Below are positions 1,331 to 52,003 of a stretch of DNA of 64,000 nucleotides, piece after piece. Where the stretch lies: contig OY992536.1 of NCBI GenBank assembly GCA_963921195.1, positions 176,894,995 to 176,958,994 on the forward strand, read 5' to 3'. The stretch's first letter is position 1. The number at the start of each line of letters is the position of its first letter. The translations under genes were made by a program, and so were the position numbers. The DNA comes from Pegoplata infirma. Its lineage: Eukaryota > Arthropoda > Insecta > Diptera > Anthomyiidae. The notes beneath the pieces are model-generated. The model was not told where the DNA came from. It searched no databases and saw nothing but the letters and a program-made list of their open reading frames with translations.

Positions 1331-1708
1331 AAATCAGAAAAAATCGTCCTTGTAACCAAAATCACAAGGGACCTCAAAATCTATGTGTTTTGACGTAAAG
1401 CATCAGCAACCACTTAAAACCTAACCAAAATTATTATATCGCAAAAATTTTTAAAACAGGAGCTAATCTAGAAAAACGGTTAGAACATCCTTTGTGTCCC
1501 ATTTGTCGGAAAAAGTCTACAAATCGAGCACAGAAAAAAAAATTATTTGAATTGTTGGTTAATTTTTAATAACGTTTTTAAATTAACGAAAAATTTCATT
1601 GTATTTACAAACTGTGTTGTTAACTTAAAAATCAATTAATTTCTTTGTCAATACAATTAAATTGCTTGTCTTAATAGAAAATGAAATTTCATGCGTAGTG
1701 TTATCATC
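1331..1708. other. AT-rich flank, no recognisable feature
   Basis: No ORF, RNA gene or repeat recognised. It is the left flank of the FB1 insertion and ends ATCATC immediately before the TA at 1709-1710. Confidence 0.5.
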
Positions 1709-1710
1709 TA

Positions 1711-1890
1711 CACCATTTACAGATGTAATTCGAAAAAGATCAATTGTAATTCGAAGATTCTATTTGTAATTCGAAGATTCCATTTGTAATTCGAAGATTC
1801 CATTTGTAATTCGAAGATTCCATTTGTAATTCGAATACTCCAATTGTAATTCGAAGATTCCATTTGTAATTCGAAGATTCCAATTGTAAT
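1711..1890. repeat. FB terminal cap of 20-bp units
   Basis: After the terminal CACCATTTACAG come one GATCAATTG unit, one GATTCTATTTG unit, several GATTCCATTTG units, a distinctive TACTCCAATTG unit, then GATTCCATTTG and GATTCCAATTG units. Each is about 20 bp and ends GTAATTCGAA. The same order, marker unit included, recurs at both ends of FB1, FB2 and FB3. The cap is therefore conserved while the 21-bp array behind it varies in length, suggesting that it holds the sequence needed for mobilisation (inference). Confidence 0.8.
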
Positions 1891-3065
1891 TCGAAAAAGA
1901 TCAATTGTAATTCGTAAAAGATCAATTGTAATTCGAAAAAGATCAATTGTAATTCGAAAAAGATCAATTGTAATTCGTAAAAGATCAATTGTAATTCGAA
2001 AAAGATCAATTGTAATTCGTAAAAGATCAATTGTAATTCGTAAAAGATCAATTGTAATTCGAAGATTCCAATTGAAATTCGTAAAAGATCAATTGTAATT
2101 CGAAAAAGATCAATTGTAATTCGAAGATTCCAATTGTAATTCGTAAAAGATCAATTGTAATTCGAAAAAGATCAATTGTAATTCGAAAAAGATCAATTGT
2201 AATTCGTAAAAGATCAATTGTAATTCGTAAAAGATCAATTGTAATTCGAAAAAGATCAATTGTAATTCGTAAAAGATCAATTGTAATTCGAAAAAGATCA
2301 ATTGTAATTCGAAAAAGATCAATTGTAATTCGTAAAAGATCAATTGTAATTCGAAAAAGATCAATTGTAATTCGAAAAAGATCAATTGTAATTCGAAAAA
2401 GATCAATTGTAATTTGTAAAAGATCAATTGAAATTCGTAAAAGATCAATTGTAATTCGAAAAAGATCAATTGTAATTCGAAAAAGATCAATTGTAATTCG
2501 AAAAAGATCAATTGTAATTCGTAAAAGATCAATTGTAATTCGTAAAAGATCAATTGTAATTCGAAAAAGATCAATTGTAATTCGAAGATTCCAATTGTAA
2601 TTCGTAAAAGATCAATTGTAATTCGTAAAAGATCAATTGTAATTCGAAAAAGATCAATTGTAATTCGAAAAAGATCAATTGTAATTCGTAAAAGATCAAT
2701 TGTAATTCGTAAAAAATCAATTGTAATTCGAAAAAGATCAATTGTAATTCGTAAAAGATCAATTGTAATTCGAAAAAGATCAATTGTAATTCGTAAAAGA
2801 TCAATTGTAATTCGAAAAAGATCAATTGTAATTCGAAAAAGATCAATTGTAATTCGAAAAAGATCAATTGTAATTCGTAAAAGATCAATTGTAATTCGAA
2901 AAAGATCAATTGTAATTCGTAAAAGATCAATTGTAATTCGAAAAAGATCAATTGTAATTCGTAAAAGATCAATTGTAATTCGAAAAAGATCAATTGTAAT
3001 TCGAAAAAGATCAATTGTAATTCGAAAAAGATCAATTGTAATTCGTAAAAGATCAATTGTAATTC
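1890..3065. repeat. 21-bp tandem array, left arm of FB1
   Basis: About 56 copies of GATCAATTGTAATTCGWAAAA, where the variable base is A or T. Each unit contains the palindromes CAATTG and, in the A form, TTCGAA, plus an A4-A5 tract repeated every 21 bp. A and T variants are interspersed in an order mirrored in the opposite arm (9690-10865). The repeat translates as an open heptad because 21 is a multiple of three. I do not regard this as a gene. Confidence 0.9.
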
Positions 3066-3146
3066 GAAGATTCTACTTGTAATTCGAAGATTCCATTTGT
3101 AATTCGAAGATTCTATTTGTAATTCGAAGATTCCAATTGTAATTCG

Positions 3147-3370
3147 AAAACGAATGAAACAGAAGATCAACAAAAAATAGTTTTTAATGGCGTACAAAAC
3201 GTAACATGTGTACAAGTAAATTATGCAGATTGATGGGGCCAAAACAAAGTTGAATATTATATAAAGACCAATAGGCACGAAACAGGGATGTAAGTAAGTA
3301 ATTTCACGTGTTAAAATATAGGAAAAATTTTATATATTTTAAAACGCTGAAGCTAGAGACTTGAAATTTG
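3147..3370. other. FB1 inner edge, shared with the FB3 centre
   Basis: Single-copy sequence directly inside the tandem array (ATGAAACAGAAGATCAACAA, TTTTTAATGGCGTA). An imperfect match (AAATCAACAAAAAAACAATG, TTTTTAAAGGCGTA) occupies the centre of FB3. This ties the two elements together and identifies FB3 as an internal-deletion derivative. Confidence 0.7.
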
Positions 3371-5850
3371 GAATGTAGGTTCGCTCCCGACAAAACCACC
3401 CACTAAGAAGGGATTTTTGGAAATTCCGATTCTAAGGGGGGCAAAAGGGGGAAAATAGGGCCCTTTGGGGGATTTTGTATCTTTTGAACTAATAGTCCTA
3501 GAGACTTCAAATTCGAACTATAGGATCCTCTCGCGTAAATAAAATTCCGGAAAAAATATTTTTGGAAAATTCCGCCTCCAAGGGGGAAAATAGGGGGGAA
3601 ATAGGGCAAATGGGTACATTTTTAATATTCTAAACAAATGGTCCCAGAAACTTCAAATTTGAACACTAGGAGCCTCTCGCGGAAATAACATTTTGAAAAA
3701 AGTAATATTTTGAAAATTCCGTTTCTAAGGTGGGGGGAGGGGGAAAGTAGGGCAAGTTGGTACATTTTGTATCTTCAGAACTAATAGTCCTACAATGTTG
3801 AAATTTTGAATATAGGATACTCTCGCGGAAAAAACATTTTGGAAAAAGTACTTTTTTGAAAATTCCGGTTTTATGGGGGACAAAGAGGGAGAAAATAGGG
3901 CAATTTGGTGAATTTTGAACTAATGGTCCTAGAAACTAGATATTTGGACTGTAGTATCCTCTCGGAGAAAAAACCTTTTTTTACAAAAATTTTTTTACTC
4001 AAAATTTTTTTTCACTCAAAATTTTTTTTACTCAATTTGTTTTTTTTTACAAAATTTTTTTTACTAAAATTTTTTTTTTACTCAAAATTTTTTTTTCACT
4101 CAAAATTTTTTTTCACTCAAAATTTTTTTTCAATCAAAATTTTTTTTACTCAAAACTTTTTTTTACTCAACATTTTTTTTTTACTCAACATTTTTTCACT
4201 CAATTTTTTTTACTAAAAATTTTTTTCACTCAATTGTATTTTATACTTCAGTTTTTTTTGCTCAATTTTTTTTACTTAGAAGGTGTTTTCACCCAATTTT
4301 TTTTTTTACTCAAAATTTTTTTTACTCAATTTTTTTACTCAAAAATTTTTTCGCTTAATTTTTTGACTCAAATTTTTTACTCAATTTATTTTTTCTCATT
4401 TTTGCTTTTTTGTGGGAATTTCTTGATTTAATCACTAAAATTAAGGGGGAAATAGAACAATTTTGAACATTTCGATTCTCTGAACTAGCGGTCCCAGAAA
4501 CCTGAAATTTGGACTATAGGATCCTCTCGCGGAAATAATATTTTGAAAAGACGCTTCTAAGAAGGGGAAATGACGAAAAAGGGCAATTTTGTTAATGTTT
4601 GGTCCTAGAAACTTAAAGTTTGGACTATAAGATCCTCTAACGGAAAAAACATTCTGAAACAAAGTTTTGTTTATAATTCTGATTCTAGGGGGTTGTTGGG
4701 GAAAGTAGGATAATTTGGTACATTTTGTATCTTCTGAACTAATGCTCCTAGAAACTTAAAAATTTGGACTATATGATCCTCTCGCGGAAATAACGTTCTG
4801 AAGTATTTTTTGAAAATTTTCATTCAAATTTTGGGGGGAAATAGGACGATTTTGAACATTTTCTATATTCTGAACTAATGGTCCCAGAAACCTGAAATTT
4901 GGACTATAGGATCCTCTCGGGGAAATAATATTCTGAAGAAAGTACTTTTTTAAAAAGGCACTTCTAAGAAGGGGAAAAGGTGGAAAATTGGGCAATTTGG
5001 TACATTTTCTTTTTTCTGACCTAATGGTCCTAGAAACTTAAAGTTTGGACTATAAGATCCCCTCGCAGAAAAAAAATCCGAAACAAAGTTTTTTTTCAAT
5101 TCCGCTTCTAGGGTGGTAAAAAGGGGGATAATAGGAAAATTTGGTACAATTTGTATCTTCTGAACTAATTTTCCCAAAATCTTAAAAATTTTGACAATGG
5201 GATCCTCTCGCGGAAATAACATAGTAAGAAAGTTCTATTTTGAAAATTTCGCTTCTAAGGGTGAAAAAGGGGGAAAGTAGTAATTTTGTGTCTGCTGAAC
5301 TAATGGTCGTAGATACTTGAAATTTGGACTGTACGATCCTCTCGCGGAAATAACATTTTGAAAGAAGTACTTTTTGAAAATTCCGCTTCTAAGGGGGAAA
5401 AAGGGGAAGTAGGGCAATTTTGTATCTGCTGAAATAATGGTCCTAGATACTTAAAATTTGGACTGTACGATCCTCTCGCGAAAAGAACATTCTAAAAGAA
5501 GCACTTTTTGGAAAATTTCGCTTCTAAGGGGGGAAAGGGGGAAAGTAGGGCAATTTTGCTAACTAATGGCCATAGATACTTGAAATTTAGTCTGAACGAT
5601 CCTCTCTCGGAAATAACATTCTAAAGGAAGTACTTTTTCAAAATTCTGTGGGAAAATGGGGGGAAAAAATTACAATTTTGAATCTACTGAACTAATGGTC
5701 CTAGATACTTAAAATTTGAACTGTACGATCCTTTCGGGGAAATAACATTCTTAAGAAACAACTTTTTTAAAAATTCCGCTTTAAGGGGGGAAAAGGGAAA
5801 AGTAGGGCCCTTTGAGGGATTTGGTATCTTTTGAACAAATAGTCCTAGAA
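3370..5850. repeat. 130-150-bp satellite, left arm of FB1
   Basis: About 14-15 diverged tandem units, each with CTAATGGTCCTAGAAACTT, GGATCCTCTCGCGGAAATAA and a purine-rich block (GAAAAAGGGGGAAA). The GATCCTCTC motif recurs at roughly 3527, 3672, 3828, 3956, 4520, 4641, 4776, 4910, 5067, 5200, 5335, 5468, 5600 and 5730. The stretch 3970-4440 interrupts it. ORFs rich in RGSYSPNF are translations of the satellite and are not genes. The mirror image lies at 7080-9390. Confidence 0.85.
3970..4440. repeat. ACTCAAAATTTTTTTT short tandem repeat
   Basis: Roughly 16-bp degenerate repeat of ACTCAAAATTTTTTTT inside the left-arm satellite. The mirror copy is at about 8330-8790 and differs slightly in length. 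The same motif appears outside FB1 at 14186-14265, 36580-36660 and 55310-55350. Confidence 0.8.
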
Positions 5851-6057
5851 GGCTGTGGGCAAAATCGCCCATAGAAAAATCGCCAAAAAAGTTTTATGAA
5901 AAATCGCCCCAAAAAATTTGAAAAATTACCCAAAAAAAAATACGAAACTTCGCCCAAAATTAACGAAAAAAAGTCCAAAAATAAAATGATAAATGGCCCA
6001 AAATAAAATAAAAAAAGATTTTTTCTAACACATTTTTTTCCAAAACATATACTAAAC
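5850..6057. repeat. ATCGCCCAAAA-type repeat at arm base
   Basis: Degenerate short repeat (AAAATCGCCCATAGAAAAATC, then CGCCAAAAAAG) ending at the inner limit of the left arm (CCAAAACATATACTAAAC). The right-arm counterpart is 6808-7040 and is more diverged than the outer arm. Confidence 0.7.
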
Positions 6058-6807
6058 AGAAACACTCAAAATATTTTGTAAGTAAATTCAACTAAAAAAA
6101 ATTTTTAAAACAATCGTTTTTCCTTTTAAAAAACGGACTACTTATACTTAATTTAAAACAACATACTTTTTAAGTTATTTTTAAAGGTTAAAAAATGACT
6201 AGATATTCCGTAAAAACAAATGATATTTCAGTTATTTTAACTGTTTACAATTTTTTATTTTGTGGAGTAAAAATATTTTTTTTTTTTTAAACAAACTACA
6301 AAAACCGTACTTCTGTAAAATTATACGGTATAATCAGTCACAAATAATTTAACTGATAAAAATATTTTTCCGTAAATTTTGTAGTTTATTGTTTTAACAA
6401 CTGTATAAATCTTTCAATATTTTAGTATTTTTGAAAAACAAACGATAAAACGTTTAAAACAACTTTAACGAAAAACTTTTTGAATAACCGTAAATAGTTA
6501 CCGTAAAACTTTTCTGGGTGAAAGCTTTCTTTTGCGGAGAGGGTGGGGTCTAAGGCATGGAGTTTGTAATCCCTAAGCCCGGCCAGAGGCCGGCTACGCG
6601 CTTTTTTTTGTTAAAATTTGTTGGTAAATTTTTTTTGCCTGCGGCGCTTTGGTCGGTGCTAATTATAATTTTTTTTATTTCGTTAAAATTTAAGTTTCAC
6701 ACTTAAAACTTTTACATCAATTACTTATGCGTAACCTATGGTCTTATCTCAAAAGTTTTTGTCTTTGTCTTAAAGTTCTTCTGCGTAGCCGGCCTCTGGC
6801 CGGGCTT
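6058..6807. other. FB1 central core (750 bp)
   Basis: The only unpaired part of FB1. 6070-6520 is AT-rich without ORFs. 6530-6807 carries GCGGAGAGGGTGGGG followed by the GC-rich CCCGGCCAGAGGCCGGCTAC (6571-6596), with an inverted copy at 6783-6806 (GTAGCCGGCCTCTGGCCGGG). A near-identical block occurs at 53776-53850 inside an unrelated element. No transposase is encoded, so this copy is non-autonomous. Confidence 0.7.
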
Positions 6808-9800
6808 GTTTAGTGTATGTTTTGGAAAAAAAATGTGTTAGAAAAAATCTTTTTTTATTTTATTTTGGGCCATTTTTCATTTCATTTTTGGACTTTTTTT
6901 CGTTAATTTTGGGCGAAGTTTCGTATTGTATTTTTTTTTTGGGTAATTTTTCATATTTTTTGGGCGATTTTGCATTTGGGCGAATTTTCATAAAACTTTT
7001 TTGGCGATTTTTCTTTGGGCGATTTTGCCCACAGCCTTCTAGGACTATTTGTTCAGAAGATACCAAATCCCTTAAAGGGCCCTACTTTCCCCCTTTTTCC
7101 CCCTTAAAGCGGAATTTTTAAAAAAGTTGTTCTTTAAGAATGTTATTTCCCCGAAAGGATCGTACAGTTCAAATTTCAAGTATCTAGGACCATTAGTTCA
7201 GCAGACTCAAAATTGTAATTTTTCCCCCCATTTTCCCACAGAATTTTGAAAAAGTACTTCCTTTAGAATGTTATTTCCGAGAGAGGATCGTTCAGTCTAA
7301 ATTTCAAGTATCTATGGCCATTAGTTAGCAAAATTGCCCTACTTTCCCCCTTTCCCCCTTTCCCCCCTTAGAAGCGAAATTTTCCAAAAAGTGCTTCTTT
7401 TAGAATGTTCTTTCCGCGAGAGGATCGTACAGTCCAAATTTCAAGTATCTACGACCATTAGTTCAGCAGACACAAAATTATAATATTTCAAAATAGAACT
7501 TTCTTCACTATGTTATTTCCGCGAGAGGATCCCATTGTCAACATTTTTAAGTTTTTGGGAAAATTAGTTCAGAAGATACAAATTGTACCAAATTTTCCTA
7601 TTATCCCCCTTTTTACCACCCTAAAAGCGGAATTGAAAAAAAAACTTTGTTTCGGAATTTTTTTCTGCGAGGGGATCTTATAGTCCAAACTTTAAGTTTC
7701 TAGGACCATTAGGTCAGAAAAAAGAAAATGTACCAAATTGCCCAATTTTCCACCTTTTCCCCTTCTTAGAAGTGCCTTTTTAAAAAAGTACTTTCTTCAG
7801 AATATTATTTCCCCGAGAGGATCCTATAGTCCAAATTTCAGGTTTCTGGGACCATTAGTTCAGAATATAGAAAATGTTCAAAATCGTCCTATTTCCCCCC
7901 AAAATTTGAATGAAAATTTTCAAAAAATACTTCAGAACGTTATTTCCGCGAGAGGATCATATAGTCCAAATTTTTAAGTTTCTAGGAGCATTAGTTCAGA
8001 AGATACAAAATGTACCAAATTATCCTACTTTCCCCCTTTCAACCCCCTAGAATCAGAATTATAAACAAAACTTTGTTTCAGAATGTTTTTTCCGTTAGAG
8101 GATCTTATAGTCCAAACTTTAAGTTTCTAGGACCAAACATTAACAAAATTGCCCTTTTTCGCCATTTCCCCTTCTTAGAAGCGTCTTTTTCAAATTATTA
8201 TTTCCGCAAGAGGATCCTATAGTCCAAATTTCAGGTTTCTGGGACCGTTAGTTCAGAGGATCGAAATGTTCAAAATTGTTCTATTTCCCCCTTAATTTTA
8301 GTGATTAAATCAAGAAATTCCCACAAAAAAGCAAAAATGAGAAAAAATAAATTGAGTAAAAAATTTGAGTCAAAAAATTAAGCGAAAAAATTTTTGAGTA
8401 AAAAAATTGAGTAAAAAAAATTTTTGAGTAAAAAAAAAAAATTGGGTGAAAACACCTTCTAAGTAAAAAAAATTGAGCAAAAAAACTGAAGTATAAAATA
8501 CAATTGAGTGAAAAAAATTTTTAGTAAAAAAAATTGAGTGAAAAAATGTTGAGTAAAAAAAATGTTGAGTAAAAAAAAGTTTTGAGTAAAAAAAAATTTT
8601 GAGTGAAAAAAAATTTTGAGTCAAAAAAAAATTTTGAGTGAAAAAAATTTTTAGTGAAAAAAAAATTTTGAGTGAAAAAAAAATTTGAGTAAAAAAAATT
8701 TTGTAAAAAAAAAAAAATTGAGTAAAAAAAATTTTGAGTGAAAAAAAATTTTGAGTAAAAAAATTTTAGTAAAAAAATTTTTTTTCTCCGAGAGGATACT
8801 ACAGTCCAAATATCTAGTTTCTAGGACCATTAGTTCAAAATTCACCAAATTGCCCTATTTTCCCCCTCTTTGTCCCCCATAAAACCGGAATTTTCAAAAA
8901 AGTACTTTTTCCAAAATGTTATTTCCGCGAGAGTATCCTATATTCAAAATTTCAACATTGTAGGACTATTAGTTCAGAAGATACAAAATGTACCAACTTG
9001 CCCTATTTTCCCCCTCCCCCCACCTTAGAAACGGAATTTTCAAAATATTACTTTTTTCAAAATGTTATTTCCGCGAGAGGCTCCTAGTGTTCAAATTTGA
9101 AGTTTCTGGGACCATTTGTTTAGAATATTAAAAATGTACCCATTTGCCCTATTTTCCCCCTATTTTCCCCCTTGGAGGCGGAATTTTCCAAAAATATTTT
9201 TTCCAGAATTTTATTTCCGCGAGAGGATCCTATAGTTCGAATTTGAAGTCTCTAGGACTATTAGTTCAAAAGATACAAAATCCCCCAAAGGGCCCTATTT
9301 TCCCCCTTTTGCCCCCCTTAGAATCGGAATTTCCAAAAATCCCTTCTTAGTGGGTGGTTTTGTCGGGAGCGAACCTACATTCCAAATTTCAAGTCTCTAG
9401 CTTCAGCGTTTTAAAATATATAAAATTTTTCCTATATTTTAACACGTGAAATTACTTACTTACATCCCTGTTTCGTGCCTATTGGTCTTTATATAATATT
9501 CAACTTTGTTTTGGCCCCATCAATCTGCATAATTTACTTGTACACATGTTACGTTTTGTACGCCATTAAAAACTATTTTTTGTTGATCTTCTGTTTCATT
9601 CGTTTTCGAATTACAATTGGAATCTTCGAATTACAAATAGAATCTTCGAATTACAAATGGAATCTTCGAATTACAAGTAGAATCTTCGAATTACAATTGA
9701 TCTTTTACGAATTACAATTGATCTTTTTCGAATTACAATTGATCTTTTTCGAATTACAATTGATCTTTTTCGAATTACAATTGATCTTTTACGAATTACA

Positions 9801-11042
9801 ATTGATCTTTTTCGAATTACAATTGATCTTTTACGAATTACAATTGATCTTTTTCGAATTACAATTGATCTTTTACGAATTACAATTGATCTTTTTCGAA
9901 TTACAATTGATCTTTTTCGAATTACAATTGATCTTTTTCGAATTACAATTGATCTTTTACGAATTACAATTGATCTTTTTCGAATTACAATTGATCTTTT
10001 ACGAATTACAATTGATCTTTTTCGAATTACAATTGATTTTTTACGAATTACAATTGATCTTTTACGAATTACAATTGATCTTTTTCGAATTACAATTGAT
10101 CTTTTTCGAATTACAATTGATCTTTTACGAATTACAATTGATCTTTTACGAATTACAATTGGAATCTTCGAATTACAATTGATCTTTTTCGAATTACAAT
10201 TGATCTTTTACGAATTACAATTGATCTTTTACGAATTACAATTGATCTTTTTCGAATTACAATTGATCTTTTTCGAATTACAATTGATCTTTTTCGAATT
10301 ACAATTGATCTTTTACGAATTTCAATTGATCTTTTACAAATTGCAATTGATCTTTTTCGAATTACAATTGATCTTTTTCGAATTACAATTGATCTTTTTC
10401 GAATTACAATTGATCTTTTACGAATTACAATTGATCTTTTTCGAATTACAATTGATCTTTTTCGAATTACAATTGATCTTTTACGAATTACAATTGATCT
10501 TTTTCGAATTACAATTGATCTTTTACGAATTACAATTGATCTTTTACGAATTACAATTGATCTTTTTCGAATTACAATTGATCTTTTTCGAATTACAATT
10601 GATCTTTTACGAATTACAATTGGAATCTTCGAATTACAATTGATCTTTTTCGAATTACAATTGATCTTTTACGAATTTCAATTGGAATCTTCGAATTACA
10701 ATTGATCTTTTACGAATTACAATTGATCTTTTACGAATTACAATTGATCTTTTTCGAATTACAATTGATCTTTTACGAATTACAATTGATCTTTTTCGAA
10801 TTACAATTGATCTTTTTCGAATTACAATTGATCTTTTACGAATTACAATTGATCTTTTTCGAATTACAATTGGAATCTTCGAATTACAAATGGAATCTTC
10901 GAATTACAATTGGAGTATTCGAATTACAAATGGAATCTTCGAATTACAAATGGAATCTTCGAATTACAAATGGAATCTTCGAATTACAAATAGAATCTTC
11001 GAATTACAATTGATCTTTTTCGAATTACATCTGTAAATGGTG
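6808..11042. repeat. FB1 right arm (4235 bp)
   Basis: Mirror of the left arm: ATCGCCC-type repeat 6808-7040, satellite 7080-8290 and 8790-9390, T-rich repeat 8330-8790, inner edge 9390-9606, 21-bp array about 9690-10865, cap 10865-11042. It carries the same rare variants as the left arm (for example GATTTTTTACG near 10033 and ATCTTTTACAAATTG near 10329), with only scattered mismatches in the outer third. Confidence 0.85.
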
Positions 11043-11044
11043 TA

Positions 11045-11774
11045 GTAACATAAAGCAAATAGTTTTAAAGTCAATCTATTATTTTCAAAATTAAGAAAAA
11101 TTGCACTAAAAACTATTAAGTTCAAATAAAATAATTTTCCCCCCAAAAATTGTATTAAATTTTCTTTTAACCGTAAATAAGTAAATTTAAAAACATCTTC
11201 TGCATATAATATTGAAAAAAAAATAAAATAAAAAATGAGGAAAATATCAAAATCAATTTAAATAAATTTATTCCATTACAATTTTAATATAAAAAATTTC
11301 AAGTACACTCACATATTAAAGAGTGTTAAAGTGTAGAGTATGAGTGTGTGTATTTAAAATGAGATTTTTTTTTTCTAAAACATTTACTTGTAACAAACAA
11401 AGGCAAAAAAAAAATATTGGAGAAGCTTGAAAGCGAATAGAAACTAAAATATAGAATTTGTCCATGAACTACGCCAAACAAAAAAAAACACTTTCTCTAG
11501 CGCAGGGGAAGTTAAAAAAATAAGTTAGAAAATTGATTTTGGTCAATAGCGAACCAAATAGTGCGGTACATCAAGTACTAAATTAATTTTTTATATAGAG
11601 AAATTTTCCGTTTCTAAGTTCTGGAATAAAAAAAAATCAGTAAAAAAAAATCTCAGATTCATAGAAATTTTTTTGGAATTTGAAAACATTTTACTATTTA
11701 AAAGAATTTTTCGATTATTCCCACTCTTATAGTCCGATGCAGGTTGATTATGTAAATGGGAAAATAATAGGAAG
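11045..11774. other. AT-rich unique DNA
   Basis: Right flank of FB1. No ORF of note, no RNA gene and no match to another part of the window recognised. Confidence 0.5.
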
Positions 11775-12375: not shown

Positions 12376-12887
12376 CCTCCGTCCCGAAATATTCTTAACA
12401 TTTCTATAGATTTTTTTGTCCCAAAATAAACTTTTCATTTTATTAAGCAGTGTTTTAGTTGAAATAAATCAAGACAAAGTTAAAAAAAACAATCTTATAC
12501 TAATCTCGTGTACTAAAATTGTAACAAAATTAATTAAAAATATTTGCAAGATGTCTCTATTGCATCGATAATGCATTTATTAAAAACCGTTAAAAGGGCC
12601 TCTAGCGTAAAATTTCTTATTTCATACGCCGCATTTTGTAATTGTTTTCATCTTTTCGACCATAGTGGACACCATGCCTGTTTGTAACGTCGAAAACAAG
12701 TTGTCTCATTTATCTGGATGCAGTTTATTGAATCCATTTTGCAAGTGAATTGAAAAATTGCAAAGCTATAAAGAATTTCTAAATTATTGATATATCCCGA
12801 TATGTATTAGCAAAAAAATCTTCTTCAAAAAATCCTCCATAATCCCAGCCAAAATAGAGAAATGTTAAGATTATTTTAGGACGGAGG
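12376..12887. mobile_element. Stowaway-like (Tc1/mariner-type) MITE, 512 bp
   Basis: Begins CCTCCGTCCCGAAATATTCT and ends with its inverse (AATCTTAACA ... GGACGGAGG read on the other strand), giving about 30 bp of imperfect terminal inverted repeat. TA lies on both sides (12374-12375, 12888-12889). The interior is non-coding. The termini resemble the Stowaway-type MITE signature, a Tc1/mariner-related group. It lies inside the 19-bp minisatellite. Confidence 0.85.
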
Positions 12888-12889
12888 TA

Positions 12890-12990
12890 GTACTAAAGTC
12901 GAAAAAATTTACTAAAGTCGAAAAAAAGTTTTAAGTCGAAAAAATGTATTAAAGTCGAAAAAATGTATTAAAGTCGAAAAAATGTCGAAA
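12890..12990. repeat. 19-bp minisatellite, short middle segment
   Basis: A few decayed ACTAAAGTCGAAAAAA units directly after the MITE. They continue the subarray at 11775-12373. Confidence 0.8.
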
Positions 12991-13495
12991 TTCAACTAAT
13001 TCAAAACATTTAATCAAAACAATGTACATTAGGGCGGGTCGATTTGTATGGATCGAAAAAATCTGAAAAATCGTATAGCAAAAACAAAATCTACAAGAAA
13101 TTCTAAGAAACTTCTCCATAGAAACCATTGGTCTAAAATCAAACCCTATATCGCGCCTAACGACATGAAAATCCGTCCGTCCGTCTGTCTTTCTGTCTGT
13201 GTGAAACACGCTAACTTTCAAATGTTAGCGGAAGAATACAAAACATATACGACAAGCTGCTGAAGCGTGGCGTATATATTTGTTATACTTCCGGTCAGAT
13301 TAATACTAAATTTCAGCGAAATCTGTCCAGTGGTTCATAAGTTATTAGCAAAATGGGAAATTTCAGATGGGTTTTAACCCGAACTCCCGTGTTGAAAAAA
13401 ACCCTAAACACGCTTTGAAAAGGAATGGTAAGCCAAAAAAATATTTTAGAAACTATTTTTGTCACTCAAAAAAACTAAAAAAAAAAAATATTACA

Positions 13496-14184
13496 CCCGA
13501 GTAAAAATAAACATATATAACAATATATAACCTGATGCAAACATAACAAATCATATATGATTATACATCGCGTGAGATATTTTCTAAATTTTTTATATGC
13601 AGTCATATGTAGTTATATATAATTTAATCATGATTCGGATTAAAAGGTTTCAGGTATTTATAATTGTATAAAATTATATGAGGGTCAATACAAAATTTTG
13701 TTTTCTGTATAATTTAACATAAAAATATATATAGCTTATTCTGTTCCATATAAAACTATATATGTTTCCAATTAACCAAAAATTTTCTAAGTTTTTAAGG
13801 CAAAGTATGAGAAACTTTTTAAAATGTTCCTAAACATTTCCTTGTTAGGGTTATGTATATCACCTATCTGGTTCGAAGCGTACCCGAACATTTTTTTGTT
13901 TATGAAAATTATATGTTTGGTGAATGTATCGTTGACCTGTGGTGTGTCTCAACCCAAACCAAAAAACACCATGATTTTACATGTTTTTATGCAATTAGAT
14001 CTAATTAGATCCACTAATATATGGCAATGTCTGGTCAAAACTCGGATGAAATCAAATAATATTTTATACAAGTTGATCTTTTTTAATGCAAAAACATCCA
14101 CCATTATTCGGATCAAATTGCGTATAAATATATATTGTGTTACATACCATTATATATTGTATCATATAAAAATTTTTACTCGGG
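13496..14184. mobile_element. CCCGAGTAAAAA-family MITE, 689-bp copy
   Basis: Starts CCCGAGTAAAAATA and ends ATTTTTACTCGGG. The flanking dinucleotide is CA on both sides instead of the TA seen in other copies. The interior is AT-rich with many TATATA steps and no coding sequence. It is nested in the element at 13027-15250. Relatives are at 15273-15566, 33770-34135, 47331-47696 and 52927-53106. Confidence 0.75.
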
Positions 14185-14439
14185 CACTCAAAAAAAAATT
14201 ACACTCAAAAAAATTTACACTCGAAAATTTTTTTTACAAAAATTAAAAAAAAAATTTACTCAAAATAAATCAAAATCTGATGTAAAAAAATATTCAGTTT
14301 TCAAAAATTTTTATCGAACACAGCTTTTTTCCTCTCCGATATTCAACTTTCCAATTTCATCCCACAAAAGTATATGTTTTTTTTTACGAAATATCCTTAT
14401 GATCCTCAATTACATACTTTTATTTACTAAGAAGAATCT

Positions 14440-14545
14440 GCTGCACCAGCTTCCCTCTGTAATTAACATACAAATGCTTTGGAGGAAATCGAACCCACAA
14501 CCACTGCACTTACTTTCAGAGTATCACGATACATGTTAATATACT
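14440..14545 (-). ncRNA. Possible tRNA-derived SINE fragment
   Basis: On the minus strand GTGGGTTCGATTTCCTCC fits an RNA polymerase III B box (GGTTCGANTCC-like), preceded by GAAAGTAAGTGCAGTGG. A convincing A box and a full tRNA fold were not found, so this is at best a fragment. Confidence 0.25.
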
Positions 14546-15272
14546 GCAGCCCAATATAAAATAAATAATGGAGTAAAATTATCGTTGATCAACGATAACT
14601 GCAGCGATTAATTGTTAAAATTTCTTATTATAATTTTTCGTCTGTGGAGTTTTCAATACAAATCATCTAATTATTTATTTCCCATTTCATGGATTATGTC
14701 TAATATACTTGGCGGTTATAATCCCAAAAATTGTTCGAATTATATCCATCGGCAATTAGTAAAGCACTGCCGCTGGATATGTTCTTGCAGCATATCGGTA
14801 TATAAAACTATGTTTTCTTTACACCTGAGGTGTAGGGTATGTTCAGCAACTTTGTAGAAAATATTATGGCAAATATTTTTGTGAAACATATTAACCCTCT
14901 AACTCCCTCTCATAACGGTATTTTTTGACTCTATTCTAACAAATCGCAAAAAACACTCCGAAAGAGGGGGATGGTGGGGATGAAATGTTCTACAAAAATG
15001 TTGCCAATAAAATTTTACTATATACCTCAGAGCACACCTAAGCCCGAAAATTAACACGAACACCAAAAAAGAGTCAAGTTCTATGTTTTGCTTATGAAAA
15101 AAGGACGGACGGACAAATCTTCATGTCGTTAGGCGCGGTATAGGGTTTGATTTTAGAAACATGGTTTCTTTGGGAAATGTTCTTAGAATTTCTTGTAGAT
15201 TATGTTTTTGCTATACGATTTTTGACAAAAAAAATCGACCCGCCCTAATGTACATACTTAAGTTTAAATAAT

Positions 15273-15566
15273 CCTAAGTAAAAATGTGAAGGATCAGTAC
15301 TGATCCGAAAAATTGATCGCTAAGATTAGATCAAATGTAATCGGACGGATAAGATTTCCTCCGAAAAATGGATTTATCTAATTACATAAACCCATTTTCG
15401 GATGACATTGTATCCGTCCGATTAAAACTGATCTAATCTTAGCGATCCATTTATCGAATCACTACTGATCATTCAAATCTCGGATCAGTACTGATCTTAT
15501 TCGGATCCGTACTGATCTTCCAAATCTCGGATAATATAATATTATATCTAAACATTTTTACTCGGG
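15273..15566. mobile_element. CCCGAGTAAAAA-family MITE, 294-bp copy
   Basis: Starts CCTAAGTAAAAATGTGAAGG, as does the copy at 52927, and ends ATTTTTACTCGGG. The interior has the palindromic AGATCAGTACTGATCC-type blocks and GATCTAATCTTAGCGATCC, also present in the 52927 copy. The flanking TA is not preserved. Non-coding. Confidence 0.75.
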
Positions 15567-15569
15567 GTC

Positions 15570-16218
15570 CCTATGAAGTCCAAAAAATGTACTGAATGCA
15601 AAAAAAATGTACTAAAGTCAAAAAAATGTACTTAAGTCAAAAAAATGTACTAAAGTCAAAAAAATGTACTAAAGTCAAAAAAATGTACTAAAGTCAAAAA
15701 AATGTACTAAAGTCAAAAAAATGTACTAAAGTCAAAAAAATGTACTAAAGTCCAAAAAATGTACTAAAGTCAAAAAATGTACTAAAGTCAAAAAAATGTA
15801 CTAAAGTCAAAAAAATGTACTAAAGTCAAAAAAATGTACTAAAGTCAAAAAAATGTACTAAAGTCAAAAAAATGTACTAAAGTCAAAAAAATGTACTAAA
15901 GTCAAAAAAATGTACTAAAGTCAAAAAAATGTACTAAAGTCAAAAAAATGTACTAAAGTCAAAAAAATGTACTAAAGTCAAAAAAATGTACTAAAGTCAA
16001 AAAATGTACTAAAGTCAAAAAAAAATGTACTAAAGTCAAAAAAATGTACTAAAGTCAAAAAAATGTACTAAAGTGAAAAAAATGTACTAAAGTCAAAAGA
16101 AAAGCACTAAAGTCAAAAAAAAAATTAAAAAGTGTACTAAAGTCAAAAAAATTTACTAAAGTCAAAAAAATGTACTAAAGCCAAAAAAATGTACTGAAGT
16201 TAAAGAAATGTACCGAAG
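15570..16218. repeat. 19-bp minisatellite, right subarray
   Basis: About 33 near-identical ATGTACTAAAGTCAAAAAA units. Same repeat as 11775-12373, but with GTCAAAA in place of the GTCGAAAA dominating the left subarray. It decays after about 16090. Confidence 0.9.
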
Positions 16219-16391
16219 TCATTTATTTATGCATCTTGATAAATGTTCTTACCAGCAAACAGACTTTGAATGTAAGATTTTCCGATATAGAAGAAAGCAA
16301 AGAGTATTCTAATCTCGCTTATGAATGACAAGGACAACAAAATGTCGGCTTTTGTGTGATGTGATTTATTCTTAATACAAAATTAAATTGA
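16219..16391. other. Short unique segment
   Basis: No ORF or repeat recognised between the minisatellite and the hAT-type MITE. It ends at the 8-bp target duplication GTTCAAAC (16392-16399). Confidence 0.4.
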
Positions 16392-16399
16392 GTTCAAAC

Positions 16400-16941
16400 T
16401 AGAGATGGGCTAATGAGCAAATAAGTGCGTGATTCACCTGGTTTACGCGTGACCACGCTTGAGTGTGACTGGACTGAATTTTACTCGCGAGATTGTAAGT
16501 GAGTGTGAGTGGAAAAAACAATTGCGTGAGTAAGATTTTTGCATGAGTTTGCTTTATTTGTTTTCTCTGCCGATATGGTTTCGTCAAGAAAAAAACAAAA
16601 ATGTAATATTTGGCTTAACTTAAAATTTTGTTCCCAAAAAATCAAAAAAAAAAAAAATGTAAACATTTGCCAAAACTTCAAATGTTGGTAAAAATGTTGT
16701 TAGATTTTTTCAATTTTAATTTCTTAAATTTGTTTTGTATAAATAAAAGTTTTTTGAGTGTTACTCAATGTGAGTGTGTATGAGTGAATCTTGTGTGAGT
16801 GCACCTGAGTGTGAATTGTATTCAATTTACTCACGAAATAGTGAGTAAGTGTAAATATTAATAAATACGAGTGTGCGTTATTGAAAAATTCCTGTTGTAA
16901 GCGTGAGTGTGTTTCAAAAGTCACTCAAGCGACCTTCTCTA
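16400..16941. mobile_element. hAT-type MITE with GTGAGTG repeats
   Basis: Starts TAGAGATGGGC and ends GCGACCTTCTCTA (compare GCGCCCATCTCTA in the copy at 23725-24420). GTTCAAAC precedes it. The partner duplication GTTCCAAC (one mismatch) lies at 17631-17638, displaced by the FB2 insertion. The interior is full of GTGAGTG and CACTCAC motifs and is non-coding. An 8-bp duplication and TAGAGATGGG ends are typical of hAT. Confidence 0.85.
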
Positions 16942-17628
16942 CACCATTTACAGATGTAATTCGAAAAAGATCAATTGTAATTCGAAGATTCTATTTGTAA
17001 TTCGAAGATTCCATTTGCAATTCGAAGATTCCATTTGTAATTCGAATACTCCAATTGTAATTCGAAGATTCCATTTGTAATTCGAAGATTCCAATTGTAA
17101 TTCGAAGATTCCAATTGTAATTCGAAAAAGATCAATTGTAATTCGAAAAAGATCAATTGTAATTCGAAAAAGATCAATTGTAATTCGAAAAAGATCAATT
17201 GTAATTCGTAAAAGATCAATTGTAATTCGTAAAAGATCAATTGTAATTGATTCCAATTGTAATTCGAAAAATATCAATGGAAATACAGTTGATATTTTTT
17301 GAATTACAATTGGAATCTTCGAATTACAATTGATCTTTTACGAATTACAATTGATCTTTTACGAATTACAATTGATCTTTTTCGAATTACAATTGATCTT
17401 TTTCGAATTACAATTGATCTTTTTCGAATTACAATTGATCTTTTTCGAATTACAATTGGAATCTTCGAATTACAAATGGAATCTTCGAATTACAATTGGA
17501 GTATTCGAATTACAAATGGAATCTTCGAATTACAAATGGAATCTTCGAATTACAAATGGAATCTTTGAATTACAAATAGAATCTTCGAATTACAATTGAT
17601 CTTTTTCGAATTACATCTGTAAATGGTG
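16942..17628. mobile_element. FB2: 687-bp Foldback-type element
   Basis: Termini CACCATTTACAG and its inverse, with TA at 16940-16941 and 17629-17630. Arms of 336 and 340 bp meet around an 11-bp loop (17278-17288). The 4-bp difference is a missing CGAA in the left arm. It has the same cap as FB1 and only about six 21-bp units per arm. It is inserted exactly at the edge of the hAT-type MITE, splitting that MITE from its right target duplication. Confidence 0.9.
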
Positions 17629-17638
17629 TAGTTCCAAC

Positions 17639-17976
17639 AAATAAAATGAGAGCCCTCCATCTCTTCGTTTCGTCGAAAACTGCAAGGTATTAAAATATAG
17701 ACTTTCATTTTCTTTAATGAAAATCTATTACATTATCATAGTAACTTAAAGCATTTCTAAATTGAATTTAGATTAACTAAAATGTTGTCATAAAATCTAA
17801 AATGCGATTTTAACAAAATTACTTTCAGGTACTCAAACTCAAATATGTGAAAAACAGAGTTTCCCAATATTACGTATATTTTTTAATTATTATTATTTTT
17901 TATTTTTTGAAAAATTTATATTGCAATTTTTCAATCTTTTAACCAGGTGTACTGCTACTGGTCTAATAGAATATAC
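17639..17976. other. Unique DNA between FB2 and FB3
   Basis: AT-rich and without recognised repeats. On the minus strand an acceptor-like TACCTTGCAG near 17680 precedes a short open stretch. I do not consider it a supported exon. Confidence 0.4.
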
Positions 17977-17978
17977 TA

Positions 17979-20045
17979 CACCATTTACAGATGTAATTCG
18001 AAAAAGATCAATTGTAATTCGAAGATTCTATTTGTAATTCGAAGATTCCATTTGTAATTCGAAGATTCCATTTGTAATTCGAAGATTCCATTTGTAATTC
18101 GAATACTTCAATTGTAATTCGAAGATTCCATTTGTAATTCGAAGATTCCAATTGTAATTCGAAAAAGATCAATTGTAATTCGAAAAAGATCAATTGTAAT
18201 TCGTAAAAGATCAATTGTAATTCGTAAAAGATCAATTGTAATTCGAAAAAGATCAATTGTAATTCGAAAAAGATCAATTGTAATTCGTAAAAGATCAATT
18301 GTAATTCGTAAAAGATCAATTGTAATTCGAAGATTCCAATTGTAATTCGTAAAAGATCAATTGTAATTCGAAAAAGATCAATTGTAATTCGAAGATTCCA
18401 ATTGTAATTCGTAAAAGATCAATTGTAATTCGAAAAAGATCAATTGTAATTCGAAAAAGATCAATTGTAATTCGTAAAAGATCAATTGTAATTCGTAAAA
18501 GATCAATTGTAATTCGAAAAAGATCAATTGTAATTCGTAAAAGATCAATTGTAATTCGAAAAAGATCAATTGTAATTCGAAAAAGATCAATTGTAATTCG
18601 TAAAAGATCAATTGTAATTCGAAAAAGATCAATTGTAATTCGAAAAAGATCAATTGTAATTCGAAAAAGATCAATTGTAATTCGTAAAAGATCAATTGTA
18701 ATTCGTAAAAGATCAATTGTAATTCGAAAAAGATCAATTGTAATTCGAAAAAGATCAATTGTAATTCGAAAAAGATCAATTGTAATTCGAAAAAGATCAA
18801 TTGTAATTCGTAAAAGATCAATTGTAATTCGAAAAAGATCAATTGTAATTCGAAAAAGATCAATTGTAATTCGTAAAAGATCAATTGTAATTCGTAAAAG
18901 ATCAATTGTAATTCGAAGATTCCATTTGTAATTCGAAGATTCCATTTGTAATTCGAAGATTCCAATTGTAATTCGAAAACAACGAGTATAAAATCGTTTC
19001 TTACGCCTTTAAAAACATTGTTTTTTTGTTGATTTACTCGTTGGTTTTCGAATTACAATTGGAATCTTCGAATTACAAATGGAATCTTCGAATTACAAAT
19101 GGAATCTTCGAATTACAATTGATCTTTTACGAATTACAATTGATCTTTTACGAATTACAATTGATCTTTTTCGAATTACAATTGATCTTTTTCGAATTAC
19201 AATTGATCTTTTACGAATTACAATTGATCTTTTTCGAATTACAATTGATCTTTTTCGAATTACAATTGATCTTTTTCGAATTACAATTGATCTTTTTCGA
19301 ATTACAATTGATCTTTTACGAATTACAATTGATCTTTTACGAATTACAATTGATCTTTTTCGAATTACAATTGATCTTTTTCGAATTACAATTGATCTTT
19401 TTCGAATTACAATTGATCTTTTACGAATTACAATTGATCTTTTTCGAATTACAATTGATCTTTTTCGAATTACAATTGATCTTTTACGAATTACAATTGA
19501 TCTTTTTCGAATTACAATTGATCTTTTACGAATTACAATTGATCTTTTACGAATTACAATTGATCTTTTTCGAATTACAATTGATCTTTTTCGAATTACA
19601 ATTTATCTTTTACGAATTACAATTGGAATCTTCGAATTACAATTGATCTTTTTCGAATTACAATTGATCTTTTACGAATTACAATTGGAATCTTCGAATT
19701 ACAATTGATCTTTTACGAAATTCAATTGATCTTTTACGAATTACAATTGATCTTTTTCGAATTACAATTGATCTTTTTCGAATTACAATTGATCTTTTAC
19801 GAATTACAATTGATCTTTTACGAATTACAATTGATCTTTTTCGAATTACAATTGATCTTTTTCGAATTACAATTGGAATCTTCGAATTACAAATGGAATC
19901 TTCGAATTACAATTGGAGTATTCGAATTACAAATGGAATTTTCGAATTACAAATGGAATCTTCGAATTACAAATGGAATCTTTGAATTACAAATAGAATC
20001 TTCGAATTACAATTGATCTTTTTCGAATTACATCTGTAAATGGTG
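17979..20045. mobile_element. FB3: 2.07-kb Foldback-type element
   Basis: Termini as FB1 and FB2, with TA at 17977-17978 and 20046-20047. Arms of about 1010 bp (17979-18988 and 19035-20045) flank a 46-bp centre. Each arm has the conserved cap and roughly 36 21-bp units, broken by a few GATTCCAATTG units. The centre (ATCAACAAAAAAACAATG and TTTTTAAAGGCGTA read inverted) corresponds to the FB1 inner edge near 3150-3200, so FB3 lacks the satellite and core. Arms differ by isolated substitutions (for example near 19602 and 19718) and one 1-bp indel. Confidence 0.9.
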
Positions 20046-20082
20046 TAGAAAAATTCTCAGAATCTAATAATTTTTTTTTTAC

Positions 20083-23724: not shown

Positions 23725-24420
23725 TAGAGATGGGCACATGAGCAGATTAGAGCGTGATTCTCGTGATTCACACGTGATCACGCGTGAGTGTGACTGAATT
23801 CAATTTTACTCACGTGATTGTGAGTGAGTGTGAGTGAAGAAAAAAATTGAGTGAGTGTGCGTGAGTAAGATTTTTGCGTGAGTGAGTGTGCGTGAGTCGA
23901 TATTTTTCCGTGAGTTTGCGTGATTTATTTTCTCTTCATATTTCCTTTGAGTGTAACTGAATTAAATTTTACTCACGGGATTGTGAGTGAAGAAAAAATT
24001 AAGTGAGTGTGCGTGAGTAAGATTTTTGCATGAGTGAGTGTGCGTGAGTCGATATTTTTGCGTGATTTATTTTCTCTTCATATTTCCTTTCGTACCAAAA
24101 AAAAACAACAAAAAAAAATTGTAAAATACGGCTTTACTTAAGATTTCGTCCCAAAAAAAATTTAAAATTTAAATTTTGCTGAAAATTTTTAAAGATTTTT
24201 TAAATTTTAGTTTTTGAAATCCTTTTTTGTGTTAATAAGAGTTTTGTGAGTGTGAGTGAAGCATGCGTCAGTGCACGTGAGTGTGAGTTGTATTAAATTT
24301 ACTCACTTGATTGTGAGTGAGTGTGAGTAGAAAAAATATGCTCGTGAGTGAGTGTGCGTGATTTTAAAATGCCTGTCGTGAGTGAGTGTGAGTCAAAAAC
24401 CACTCACGCGCCCATCTCTA
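23725..24420. mobile_element. hAT-type MITE, GTGAGTG-rich, 696 bp
   Basis: Starts TAGAGATGGGCAC and ends GCGCCCATCTCTA. It is flanked by GTATAAAG (23717-23724) and GTTTAAAG (24421-24428), an 8-bp duplication with one mismatch. The interior has an internal duplication of TCACG/GTGAGTG blocks (GTGAGTGTGCGTGAGTAAG repeated near 23840-23920 and 24000-24060). Same family as 16400-16941 and the fragments near 29612 and 32190. Confidence 0.85.
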
Positions 24421-24428
24421 GTTTAAAG

Positions 24429-29610: not shown

Positions 29611-29745
29611 GATGGGAACGTAATTAGATTTGAGCGTGATTCACACATGATCAGAAGTGAGCGTGATTGAAAATTAATTTTACTCACGTGGTTGTTAGTG
29701 AGTGTCAGTGTGAGTGGAATAAAAAAATGGGCGTGTCAGTTACTT
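29611..29745. repeat. hAT GTGAGTG-MITE segment inside the arm
   Basis: TAGAGATGGGAACG followed by GTGAGTG motifs, mirrored at about 32055-32190 in the other arm. Because both arms carry it, it was present before the arms were copied from each other or were last homogenised. Confidence 0.55.
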
Positions 29746-30086
29746 CCAAATCCTATTTATAATTTTTTTGGGTTTGTTTAAAAAATATCAGTGTTACTTC
29801 TTAAACAAAAATATATTGAGAATAGGTTAAAAACAGGCTAAGGTGCGCTTGTTTTTTGAAGAGTTATACCTGCAACATTTTTATGACAGAAAAAGCTGTG
29901 CGCTTGCAAACATGTTTTTTTAAAACGAAATTGCTAAAATTGTGGGATAATTTGATGGAAATTTTACCTGTTTATAAATATACATGTGAGGCATTCCACA
30001 CCAAATGTTCAGTGAGAAAAAAATTGTGTACCAAAATTTTTCAATGGGTCCCGGGTAAAAAAGTTTTTTATATAACTAGGGGGAGA

Positions 30087-36088: not shown

Positions 36089-36089
36089 T

Positions 36090-39447: not shown

Positions 39448-39540
39448 ATACTTTATGGGGTCCTAGACTAATATTTCGAGGTGTTACAAACGGAATGACA
39501 AACTTATATATACCCTCTATCACTAGAGTGGCCGTGTGCC

Positions 39541-43019: not shown

Positions 43020-43095
43020 TACACTCAAAGAACTGGAAAACAATTTGTCATAAAAGTTCGTCCAATGAAAGTTTTTAATGAAGTTTTCATAAATA

Positions 43096-46290: not shown

Positions 46291-46294
46291 TCTA

Positions 46295-46400
46295 CACCAT
46301 TTTCAGACGTAATTCGTAAAATATTAATTGCATATCGAATATTCAATCTGAAATTCGAAGATTCTTTTCGAATGCTCTAAACTCCATTCAAAATTAGGAA
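46295..46400 (+). mobile_element. Decayed FB terminus (relic)
   Basis: CACCATTTTCAGACGTAATTC preceded by CTA, then AAATTCGAAGATTC, is a mutated copy of the FB cap (CACCATTTACAGATGTAATT). No opposite end was found. It shows that the family was active at an earlier time. Confidence 0.6.
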
Positions 46401-46535
46401 ATTCCGAATTAAGTCCTAAACAGATAAAATGCAAATGAAAGTTGACATTTTCCATAGCAAAACCCTCAAGGATTTTTAAAGTTCAGTGCTAGATTTTTTT
46501 TACACGCATTTGAAGTTGGGTGAACTTTTATTATT

Positions 46536-47176
46536 ACACCGTCCGACAGCCAATACTAAACATAAACCGGATGATATACGTCTGAAAGTAGCGATCAAAT
46601 GGAGTAAAACTGCATTTACAGTTTTCAATTCGTGATCCGGTTTCCTTTTAAAAGGACTTCAAAGGTTTAAAGGATACATTTTGAAAAATTTTTTTTGAAA
46701 TATTTGTACTTGTCCTAGGATGACACTGGTGATGGAAAATGAAAGAGGAGGATCTCCCATAATTTTCCAATTTTTTATTTTGCCATATCAGGATAAAGGG
46801 GTGTGAATAAAGTCATTTGAAAACTTTATTAAAATATTTTGTTGAAAATTTTGAATTACTATATTGAAGGATACATTTTTGAAAGGACATAACTTACCTC
46901 CTTTTTCCTGATATGCAAAAATAATAAAATAGGAAAATTAGGGGAGATTATCCTCTTACATTTGCTCTCACTAGTAGCATCCTAGGACAAGTACAAATTT
47001 AAAAAAATATTTTATAAAATTTAATCCTCTAAAACTTTGAAGTCCTTTTAAAAGGAAACAGGATCACGAAAGGAAAAACTGTAAATGCAGTTTTACTACA
47101 TATAGTCTCTAGTTTCAAACGAATAATTATCAAGTTCGTGTTTAACGATTTTTTTTTAATTTTTGTAGGACGGTGT
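46536..47176. mobile_element. Palindromic element with CACCGTCC ends
   Basis: ACACCGTCC at 46536 and GGACGGTGT at 47168-47176. Arms of about 320 bp pair, including CTTTTAAAAGGACTTCAAAG (46648) with its inverse near 47035, and GTACTTGTCCTAGGATG (46708) with its inverse near 46978. TA can be placed on both sides. Arms are moderately diverged. Non-coding. Confidence 0.7.
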
Positions 47177-47330
47177 AATTATAATAATATTTACTTAAAA
47201 ATAAGTGGCGTATACTTAATTTTGTAATTGCTTTTAAATAACAATCATACGCAACGGTAAACGGTGTTTAAATTTTAATAATTCGGCCATTCAGTAAGTA
47301 CTGGACCGATTACAGCGAAATTCATAACTA

Positions 47331-47696
47331 CCCGAGTAAAAATTTTCTGGTCTAATCATATATAATTTGATACAATCTTATATGAGTTAATATGCTTCCG
47401 TATAAATTTATATAAAATTGTATCTATCACTTTGATACGGTTGATCCACTTTATATGGTTAGATATTGCTCCATATATGATTAGATTCGTATTTTGGTTT
47501 TGCTCATCAAATTATATAAAAATTGATATTATAAGATCAATTTGATCTAATTAGATTTGACCAAATTCAGGATCAAATTGTATCAATTTTTATATTTTTT
47601 GATCTAAAGTAATACAATTAGACATTATTTGATACAACCATTTTACGGATCAAATTAGATCTATTCAGTAAAATTAGCATAATATTTTTACTAGGG
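47331..47696 (-). mobile_element. CCCGAGTAAAAA-family MITE, inverted 366-bp copy
   Basis: CCCGAGTAAAAATTTTCTGG to ATTTTTACTAGGG, with TA at 47329-47330 and 47697-47698. Reverse complement of 33770-34135 with only scattered differences and the same length. Confidence 0.9.
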
Positions 47697-47994
47697 TAAA
47701 CAAAAAGCCTTGAGGGTTTTGTTATGTAAAATGTCAACTTTCATTTTCTTTTGGTTTCATCCCATTCAGATTCGAAAAGTTTAATTTTGTATCACTGTGT
47801 AACAGTGACACTTGATTTTTCTTTAGATCTAGAAAAAAGAAAAAACTTTAGTACTACGAAAATAAAAAAAAAATGTTGCGGGGATTTCGAATATTTAACA
47901 AAAAACAATTTGGAGATTTAGAAATATTTTGATTTTTTCAAGAAGTTTTGGTAAATTAAAAAGTTTTTGTAAACCTTAATTTAAAAAAAAAAAA

Positions 47995-51132: not shown

Positions 51133-51144
51133 TAACATTTTTAA

Positions 51145-51333: not shown

Positions 51334-51345
51334 TAACATTTTTAA

Positions 51346-52001: not shown

Positions 52002-52003
52002 TA

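What the first reader, a model, noticed from the sequence alone, without database searches (positions are those of the whole stretch)
1711..11042. Giant composite Foldback-type element built from four nested repeat systems
The sequence shows a 9.3-kb inverted repeat with arms above 4 kb. Each arm is ordered as cap, 21-bp array, satellite, T-rich repeat, satellite and ATCGCCC repeat around a 750-bp core. Drosophila Foldback elements also have tandem-repeat arms, but this family has a different unit (GATCAATTGTAATTCG plus A/T tract), TA targets and a large satellite built into the arm. I know of no described element with this layout.
Basis: partly seen in the sequence, partly recalled or inferred. 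Interest (0 to 1): 0.9.

Follow-up and report, generated by a model that had tools for sequence, protein, structure and literature searches.

The report
Giant fly-type foldback transposon with satellites
A 9.3-kb mirror-image DNA element, one of three copies with intact ends in this stretch of likely fly DNA, sits between two TA pairs; it is likely a jumping gene moved by another element's enzyme, and its arms likely grew by copying one side onto the other, carrying an older satellite repeat along.

Summary
It belongs to a family: E2 (16939-17631), E3 (17976-20048) and a decayed relative (from 46292) share the 25-bp end (7 hits, mean 0.00 in shuffles). E1, E2 and E3 are each flanked by C|TA and TA|G, with no flanking repeat of 3-12 bp; a paralogous unoccupied copy of E2's site reads CTAG. 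This argues against Foldback, Galileo and Mutator types. The outer 1.8 kb of E1's arms differ at 1 of 1828 positions, the next 2.3 kb at 37 of 2146. Array order is the same in both arms (69 of 70 pieces identical). Satellite units are about 81% alike within an arm but 95-100% like their mirror partners: the satellite is older than the palindrome. Best reading: a non-autonomous foldback transposon moved in trans, its arms lengthened and equalised by repair copying. Only E1 carries the satellite; E2's arms show no equalisation. No transposase in six-frame scans of about 26.6 of 64 kb. The host genome search did not complete; Dfam and Repbase were not available.

The parts
1709..1710 (.). left TA (target duplication), in context C|TA
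   Evidence: sequence
1711..1732 (+). left terminal cap CACCATTTACAGATGTAATTCG
1724..3150 (+). left array of 20/21-bp units (54 spacings of 21 and 14 of 20)
3151..3412 (+). post-array segment; its first 50 or so bases are homologous to the E3 spacer
3413..3975 (+). satellite block 1 (units 139-146 bp)
3976..4403 (+). T-rich repeat (TTTTTTTACTCAAAA)
4431..5850 (+). satellite block 2 (units 111-146 bp)
5851..6050 (+). ATCGCCC-type repeat, inner end of left arm
6051..6814 (.). core outside the aligned arms; holds two inverted partial copies of a hairpin sequence also found at 53776-53871
6815..7033 (-). right-arm ATCGCCC-type repeat
7034..8320 (-). right-arm satellite block 2; lacks a 134-bp stretch (about one unit) present on the left
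8352..8782 (-). right-arm T-rich repeat
8783..9342 (-). right-arm satellite block 1
9343..9602 (-). right-arm post-array segment
9603..11029 (-). right array, same order as the left (69 of 70 pieces identical, cap and end piece counted)
11021..11042 (-). right terminal cap
11043..11044 (.). right TA (target duplication), in context TA|G
16939..17631 (.). E2: short foldback copy with arrays almost touching
17976..20048 (.). E3: 2.1-kb foldback copy with 1-kb arms and a short spacer related to E1's post-array segment
24164..24423 (+). paralogue of E2's left flank running across an unoccupied CTAG
46292..47780 (+). decayed relative: cap plus two to three degenerate units (by eye), inner arms 46427-46477/47702-47752, right end not found (47780 is an estimate by eye)

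Best explanation
E1 is a 9.3-kb foldback element flanked by TA on both sides, likely a non-autonomous DNA transposon moved in trans by an unidentified TA-duplicating transposase, whose arms likely grew and were kept alike because one arm is copied onto the other during break repair. Shown: three elements with the same ends and C|TA...TA|G flanks, a paralogous copy of one site that reads CTAG, the same array order in both arms of E1, near-identical outer arms with more divergent inner arms, and satellite units far more diverged within an arm than between arms. Inferred: the array units, which repeat the terminal motif TGTAATTCG about every two helical turns, give the transposase extra binding sites. 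Inferred: breaks at the element ends are repaired from the opposite arm, so the ends are rewritten most often. Inferred: one long copying tract ran through the array and post-array segment into satellite, T-rich and ATCGCCC sequence and so turned them into arm. E3 and E2 are likely shorter, internally deleted relatives.
For: Same 25-bp end at E1, E2, E3 (6 of 6 ends exact) and a decayed copy (2 mismatches); mean 0.00 in 100 shuffles. TA is the only flanking repeat of 2 bp or more in 3 of 3 elements at trims 0-5; none of 3-12 bp. All 7 ends have C/G outside the TA (about 1.4e-6 by base frequency). E2's left flank has a paralogue (24164-24423, 71%) whose match runs through CTCTAGTT; a CTAG join scored best of 10 joins (175; next 169; plain join 163). 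E1 arms: 1 of 1828 mismatches outer, 37 of 2146 inner, Fisher P 3.9e-9; the indels of the arms all lie at 4090 or further in. The low-divergence tract ends inside the satellite (first inner mismatch at 3536), not at a module border. Array order matches at 69 of 70 pieces between E1 arms, with the rare variants H (twice), I and J in both; the differing pair (M/N) shares a mutation. 12 of 12 left satellite units compared match a right unit at 0.953-1.0, against 0.72-0.91 within an arm. E3 spacer is homologous to E1 post-array. Galileo gives a published precedent for TIR extension by repair copying.
Against: No transposase or autonomous partner was found. Only one copy carries the satellite arms, so movement of the 9.3-kb form as a unit is not shown; it may have grown in place. 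Arm equalisation is clear in E1 and, over 1000 bases, in E3, but not in E2: its arms differ at 9 of 300 while its right arm differs from E1 at 3 of 300; and over the outermost 180 bases E3's two arms differ at 3 while its left arm differs from E1 at 1. The CTAG paralogue matches only 6 bp past the flank (CTAG and TT); beyond CTAG 11 of 18 ungapped, which about 1% of window positions equal. The rise of divergence by 250-bp bins is not smooth (Spearman 0.62, P 0.008). Near-identity of the outer arms could be raised by assembly polishing.
Confidence: 0.68

Rival explanations
1. The element ends are CTACACC and it inserts without any duplication, or belongs to a P or Mutator type foldback whose longer duplication has decayed.
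For: CTA/TAG is constant at all 7 ends. Most foldback elements seem to be Mutator-like (Tetris paper, passages).
Against: No flanking repeat of 3-12 bp at any of 3 elements, and a no-duplication join fits the paralogous site worse (163 against 175).
Confidence: 0.15
2. The palindrome, or its arm identity, is an assembly product (hairpin read, or polishing one arm to the other).
For: Outer arms differ at 1 of 1828 positions; reads were not available.
Against: Inner arms carry 37 mismatches in 2146 plus 16-bp, 31-bp and 134-bp indels; the middle aligns poorly between arms; flanks differ; E2 and E3 have the same design.
Confidence: 0.08
3. E1 is an E3-like element into which a second, ready-made satellite palindrome inserted at the spacer.
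For: The E3 spacer is homologous to E1's post-array segment, and the inner arms are more diverged than the outer arms.
Against: The low-divergence tract crosses from the post-array segment into the satellite, and I saw no cap or duplication by eye at the inner border; that border was not searched systematically.
Confidence: 0.2
4. The CACC end with TA duplication marks a CACTA-like (CMC/Mirage) element rather than Tc1/mariner.
For: CACTA-like elements have CAC ends, short duplications and subterminal repeats (recalled, from no call).
Against: Nothing tested here separates the two; the palindromic CTAG target resembles the Tc4 CTNAG target.
Confidence: 0.25

Closest known systems
Galileo (Drosophila, P superfamily), two-recombinant-TIR copies
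   Same: Long TIRs with internal tandem repeats, TIR extension into internal sequence by repair copying proposed, TIRs of one copy 98-100% alike (passages; discussion part 1)
   Different: 7-bp flanking duplication, TIRs about 0.3-1.2 kb, repeat number differs between the two TIRs of F copies; here TA in CTAG, 4-kb arms and the same unit order in both arms of E1
Tetris (Drosophila virilis, Mutator-like foldback)
   Same: Non-autonomous foldback with modular TIRs and tandem repeats; link to satellite DNA (passages)
   Different: 8-10 bp duplications, 220-bp unit, TIR up to 1,735 bp; there the element gave rise to a satellite, here an older satellite seems to have been taken into the element
Tc4 (nematodes, tardigrades, arthropods; Tc1/mariner)
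   Same: Fold-back structure and palindromic target C|TNA|G with only the centre duplicated (passages)
   Different: Three-base centre TNA rather than TA; ends and internal layout were not compared, as the original paper is not held
Foldback (FB) of Drosophila melanogaster
   Same: Tandem-repeat inverted arms (recalled)
   Different: 9-bp duplication and other repeat units (recalled); TA here

Membership tests
Foldback architecture (descriptive) | Long inverted arms made of tandem repeats around a variable middle | tested here: met
   three elements
Drosophila FB / Galileo (P superfamily) | 7-9 bp target duplication | tested here: not met
   No flanking repeat of 3-12 bp at 3 of 3 elements; Galileo value, FB value recalled
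Mutator-like foldback (Tetris) | 8-10 bp target duplication | tested here: not met
   Tetris value
Tc1/mariner superfamily | TA target duplicated | tested here: met
   TA on both sides of 3 of 3 elements; CTAG in one paralogous unoccupied site
Tc1/mariner superfamily | Tc1/mariner transposase in an autonomous relative | tested here: inconclusive
   No transposase family in six-frame Pfam scans of about 26.6 of 64 kb; host genome search unanswered
Tc4 | CTNAG target with TNA duplicated | tested here: not met
   Flanks are C|TA and TA|G, paralogous site CTAG
CMC/Mirage (CACTA-like) | CACTA-type transposase and CACTR ends | not testable with these tools
   Ends are CACCA; no autonomous copy at hand; features recalled

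The most novel reading that the evidence does not exclude
A TA-duplicating, CTAG-targeting foldback family in which arm-to-arm copying acts as a capture engine: it draws pre-existing satellite arrays into the arms of a transposon and so makes satellite DNA mobile, the reverse of the known route from foldback element to satellite.
Probability: 0.35. Interest if true: 0.7.

Novelty: new variant of a known kind. Interest (0 to 1): 0.5.

Why it matters
The foldback elements compared here carry 7-10 bp duplications (Galileo, Tetris), Tc4 being the exception. A TA-duplicating insect family with arms over 4 kb would add a second, independent case outside the P and Mutator types. The layered divergence in E1 (1 of 1828 outside, 1.7% inside, about 19% on average between satellite units of one arm) suggests an order of events for how such arms form, and the captured satellite would be a direct way for satellite DNA to spread.

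Tried and rejected
One exact-pattern scan each for the 21-bp unit found nothing in viral contigs or prokaryote genome contigs, as expected for animal DNA. A letter search of open-access papers for the cap and unit found two papers, in E. coli genetics and cancer, judged chance from the listing. Searches for TA-target or CTAG-target foldback elements gave no matching element by their listings. Pfam on ten ORFs (74 ORFs of 90 aa or more are listed) and on six frames of 3150-7100, 12400-16900, 28500-33400, 35200-40100, 45200-48600 and 48600-53500 found no transposase; one sub-threshold HC2 match (E 0.026) was dismissed. About 37.4 kb, the mirror half 7100-9600 among it, was not scanned in six frames. 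A first attempt to split satellite units by a strict anchor gave too few units and was replaced by a looser scan; that scan dropped one interval per arm, the one spanning the T-rich repeat (12 of 13 left and 11 of 12 right kept). Rfam at gathering threshold gave only a tRNA hit at 51152-51224.
Full report
Observation. The window holds a 9.3-kb inverted repeat at 1708-11045. The left arm reads cap, 20/21-bp array (1724-3150), post-array segment, satellite block 1 (3413-3975), T-rich repeat (3976-4403), satellite block 2 (4431-5850) and ATCGCCC repeat (to about 6050). The right arm mirrors it, and about 764 bp in the middle lie outside the aligned arms.

A family. The 25-bp end CTACACCATTTACAGATGTAATTCG has 7 matches at up to 3 mismatches, against a mean of 0.00 in 100 shuffles: both ends of E1, E2 (16939-17631) and E3 (17976-20048), exact, and a decayed copy at 46292 with two mismatches. 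The decayed copy has the cap and two to three degenerate units rather than an array, and its inner arms pair at 46427-46477 and 47702-47752. It may show the state before the array expanded (inference). E3's spacer is homologous to the first 61 bases of the stretch from 3141 (E 7.6e-6; alignment), clearly on one side of E3 only, which fits an internal deletion from a longer, E1-like element (inference).

Target site. For the three elements and trims of 0 to 5 bases, the only flanking direct repeat of 2 bp or more is TA, at trim 3; none is 3-12 bp. The base outside TA is C on the left and G on the right at all 7 ends, about 1.4e-6 from base frequencies; if C is part of the end these are not independent, so this number alone does not decide. 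CTAG makes up 107 of 5329 TA sites in the window. E2's left flank has a 71% paralogue at 24164-24423 whose match runs through the junction as CTCTAGTT. Among ten joins tried, CTAG scored best (175), then CTA, CTATAG and CTACTAG (169), and the plain join scored 163. The match ends 6 bases past the flank (CTAG and TT), and identity beyond CTAG is weak (11 of 18, equalled by about 1% of positions). For E3 a satellite copy at 33109-33155 aligns across the join at 77% but only at E 0.032. For E1 no convincing unoccupied copy was seen (only short weak matches cross its join). I take C|TA|G as likely.

Arms. Divergence between E1's arms is 1 of 1828 for 1708-3535 and 37 of 2146 for 3536-5850 (Fisher P 3.9e-9). 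All 21 gaps of the arm alignment lie at 4090 or further in, the largest 16, 31 and 134 bp. The low-divergence tract does not end at a module border. Binned divergence rises inward on the whole (Spearman 0.62, P 0.008), though not smoothly. Split into 70 pieces (cap, units, end piece), E1's arms have the same order, 69 of 70 identical; the remaining pair differs by one base and shares a mutation. The rare variants H (twice), I and J occur in both arms, so they likely predate the last copying. E1 and E3 share much of the outer order and differ further in. Over the outer 1000 bases, E1 arms differ at 1 site and E3 arms at 6; E1 against E3 gives 11-16 mismatches plus 22 gap columns. Two results go against a simple rule. 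E2's arms differ at 9 of 300, and its right arm is closer to E1 (3 of 300) than to its own left arm, so E2 is either older since its last copying or chimeric. Over the outermost 180 bases E3's arms differ at 3 while E3's left arm and E1 differ at 1; apart from E2's left arm that stretch is alike across the family.

Satellite. Within an arm, satellite units average 81% identity (0.72-0.91 for 12 units left, 0.74-0.91 for 11 right; one interval per arm, across the T-rich repeat, was dropped). Each of the 12 left units has a right partner at 0.953-1.0, the second best being 0.835-0.899; ten pair one to one in mirror order, and two (L9, L10) share one right unit at the 134-bp deletion. The array therefore diverged long before it was turned into two arms. 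Outside E1 no copy of the satellite was found in this window at E 1e-3, low-complexity filter on.

Mechanism. The Galileo paper proposes TIR extension when a break in one TIR is repaired from another and the copied tract runs past the TIR (passage). E1 fits this, with a rewritten outer tract on top of an older, longer one. The unit repeats the TGTAATTCG of the cap at spacings of 20 or 21 bp only (14 and 54 cases in the left arm), which would put each copy on about the same face of the helix. Extra transposase sites are the published idea for Galileo and are untested here. That E1 moves as a 9.3-kb unit is not shown.

Source. A dipteran host is likely; a calyptrate is possible but not shown.

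Literature. Seven searches of open-access papers listed, by title and start of abstract, no TA-target foldback family with this layout. I saw passages of PMC4079207, PMC3573991 (plus part 1 of its discussion), PMC11071193 and PMC12910113, and the outline and abstract of PMC12368964; the original Tc4 paper was not held. Repbase and Dfam were not available, so a named family there is not excluded.

Noticed in passing
46535-47178: A separate, older palindrome ending TACACCGTCC...GGACGGTGTA lies inside the decayed relative; it also has CACC ends beside TA and may be a sister family.
   Followed up: partly
6525-6600, 6758-6808 and 53776-53871: A short sequence with a CCGGCC hairpin occurs as two inverted partial copies in the E1 core and once elsewhere at 84-85% identity; perhaps a small mobile repeat.
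   Followed up: partly
42912-45185: Non-LTR-type reverse transcriptase and RNase H, split by an in-frame stop at about 43580.
   Followed up: partly
59285-59662: Fragment matching the M17 leucine aminopeptidase family on the minus strand, perhaps a host gene exon.
   Followed up: no
29051-29357 and 32443-32749: Inverted pair of 307 nt at 95%, 3.1 kb apart, with no Pfam match in 28500-33400.
   Followed up: partly
26154-35060: Long degenerate arrays of a 36-37 bp unit (AGAATCTGAGAATTTTTCTATACGGAAAAATGTCTC); the start of E3's right flank resembles this repeat.
   Followed up: no
51152-51224: tRNA match just above Rfam's gathering score (31.9 against 29 bits).
   Followed up: no
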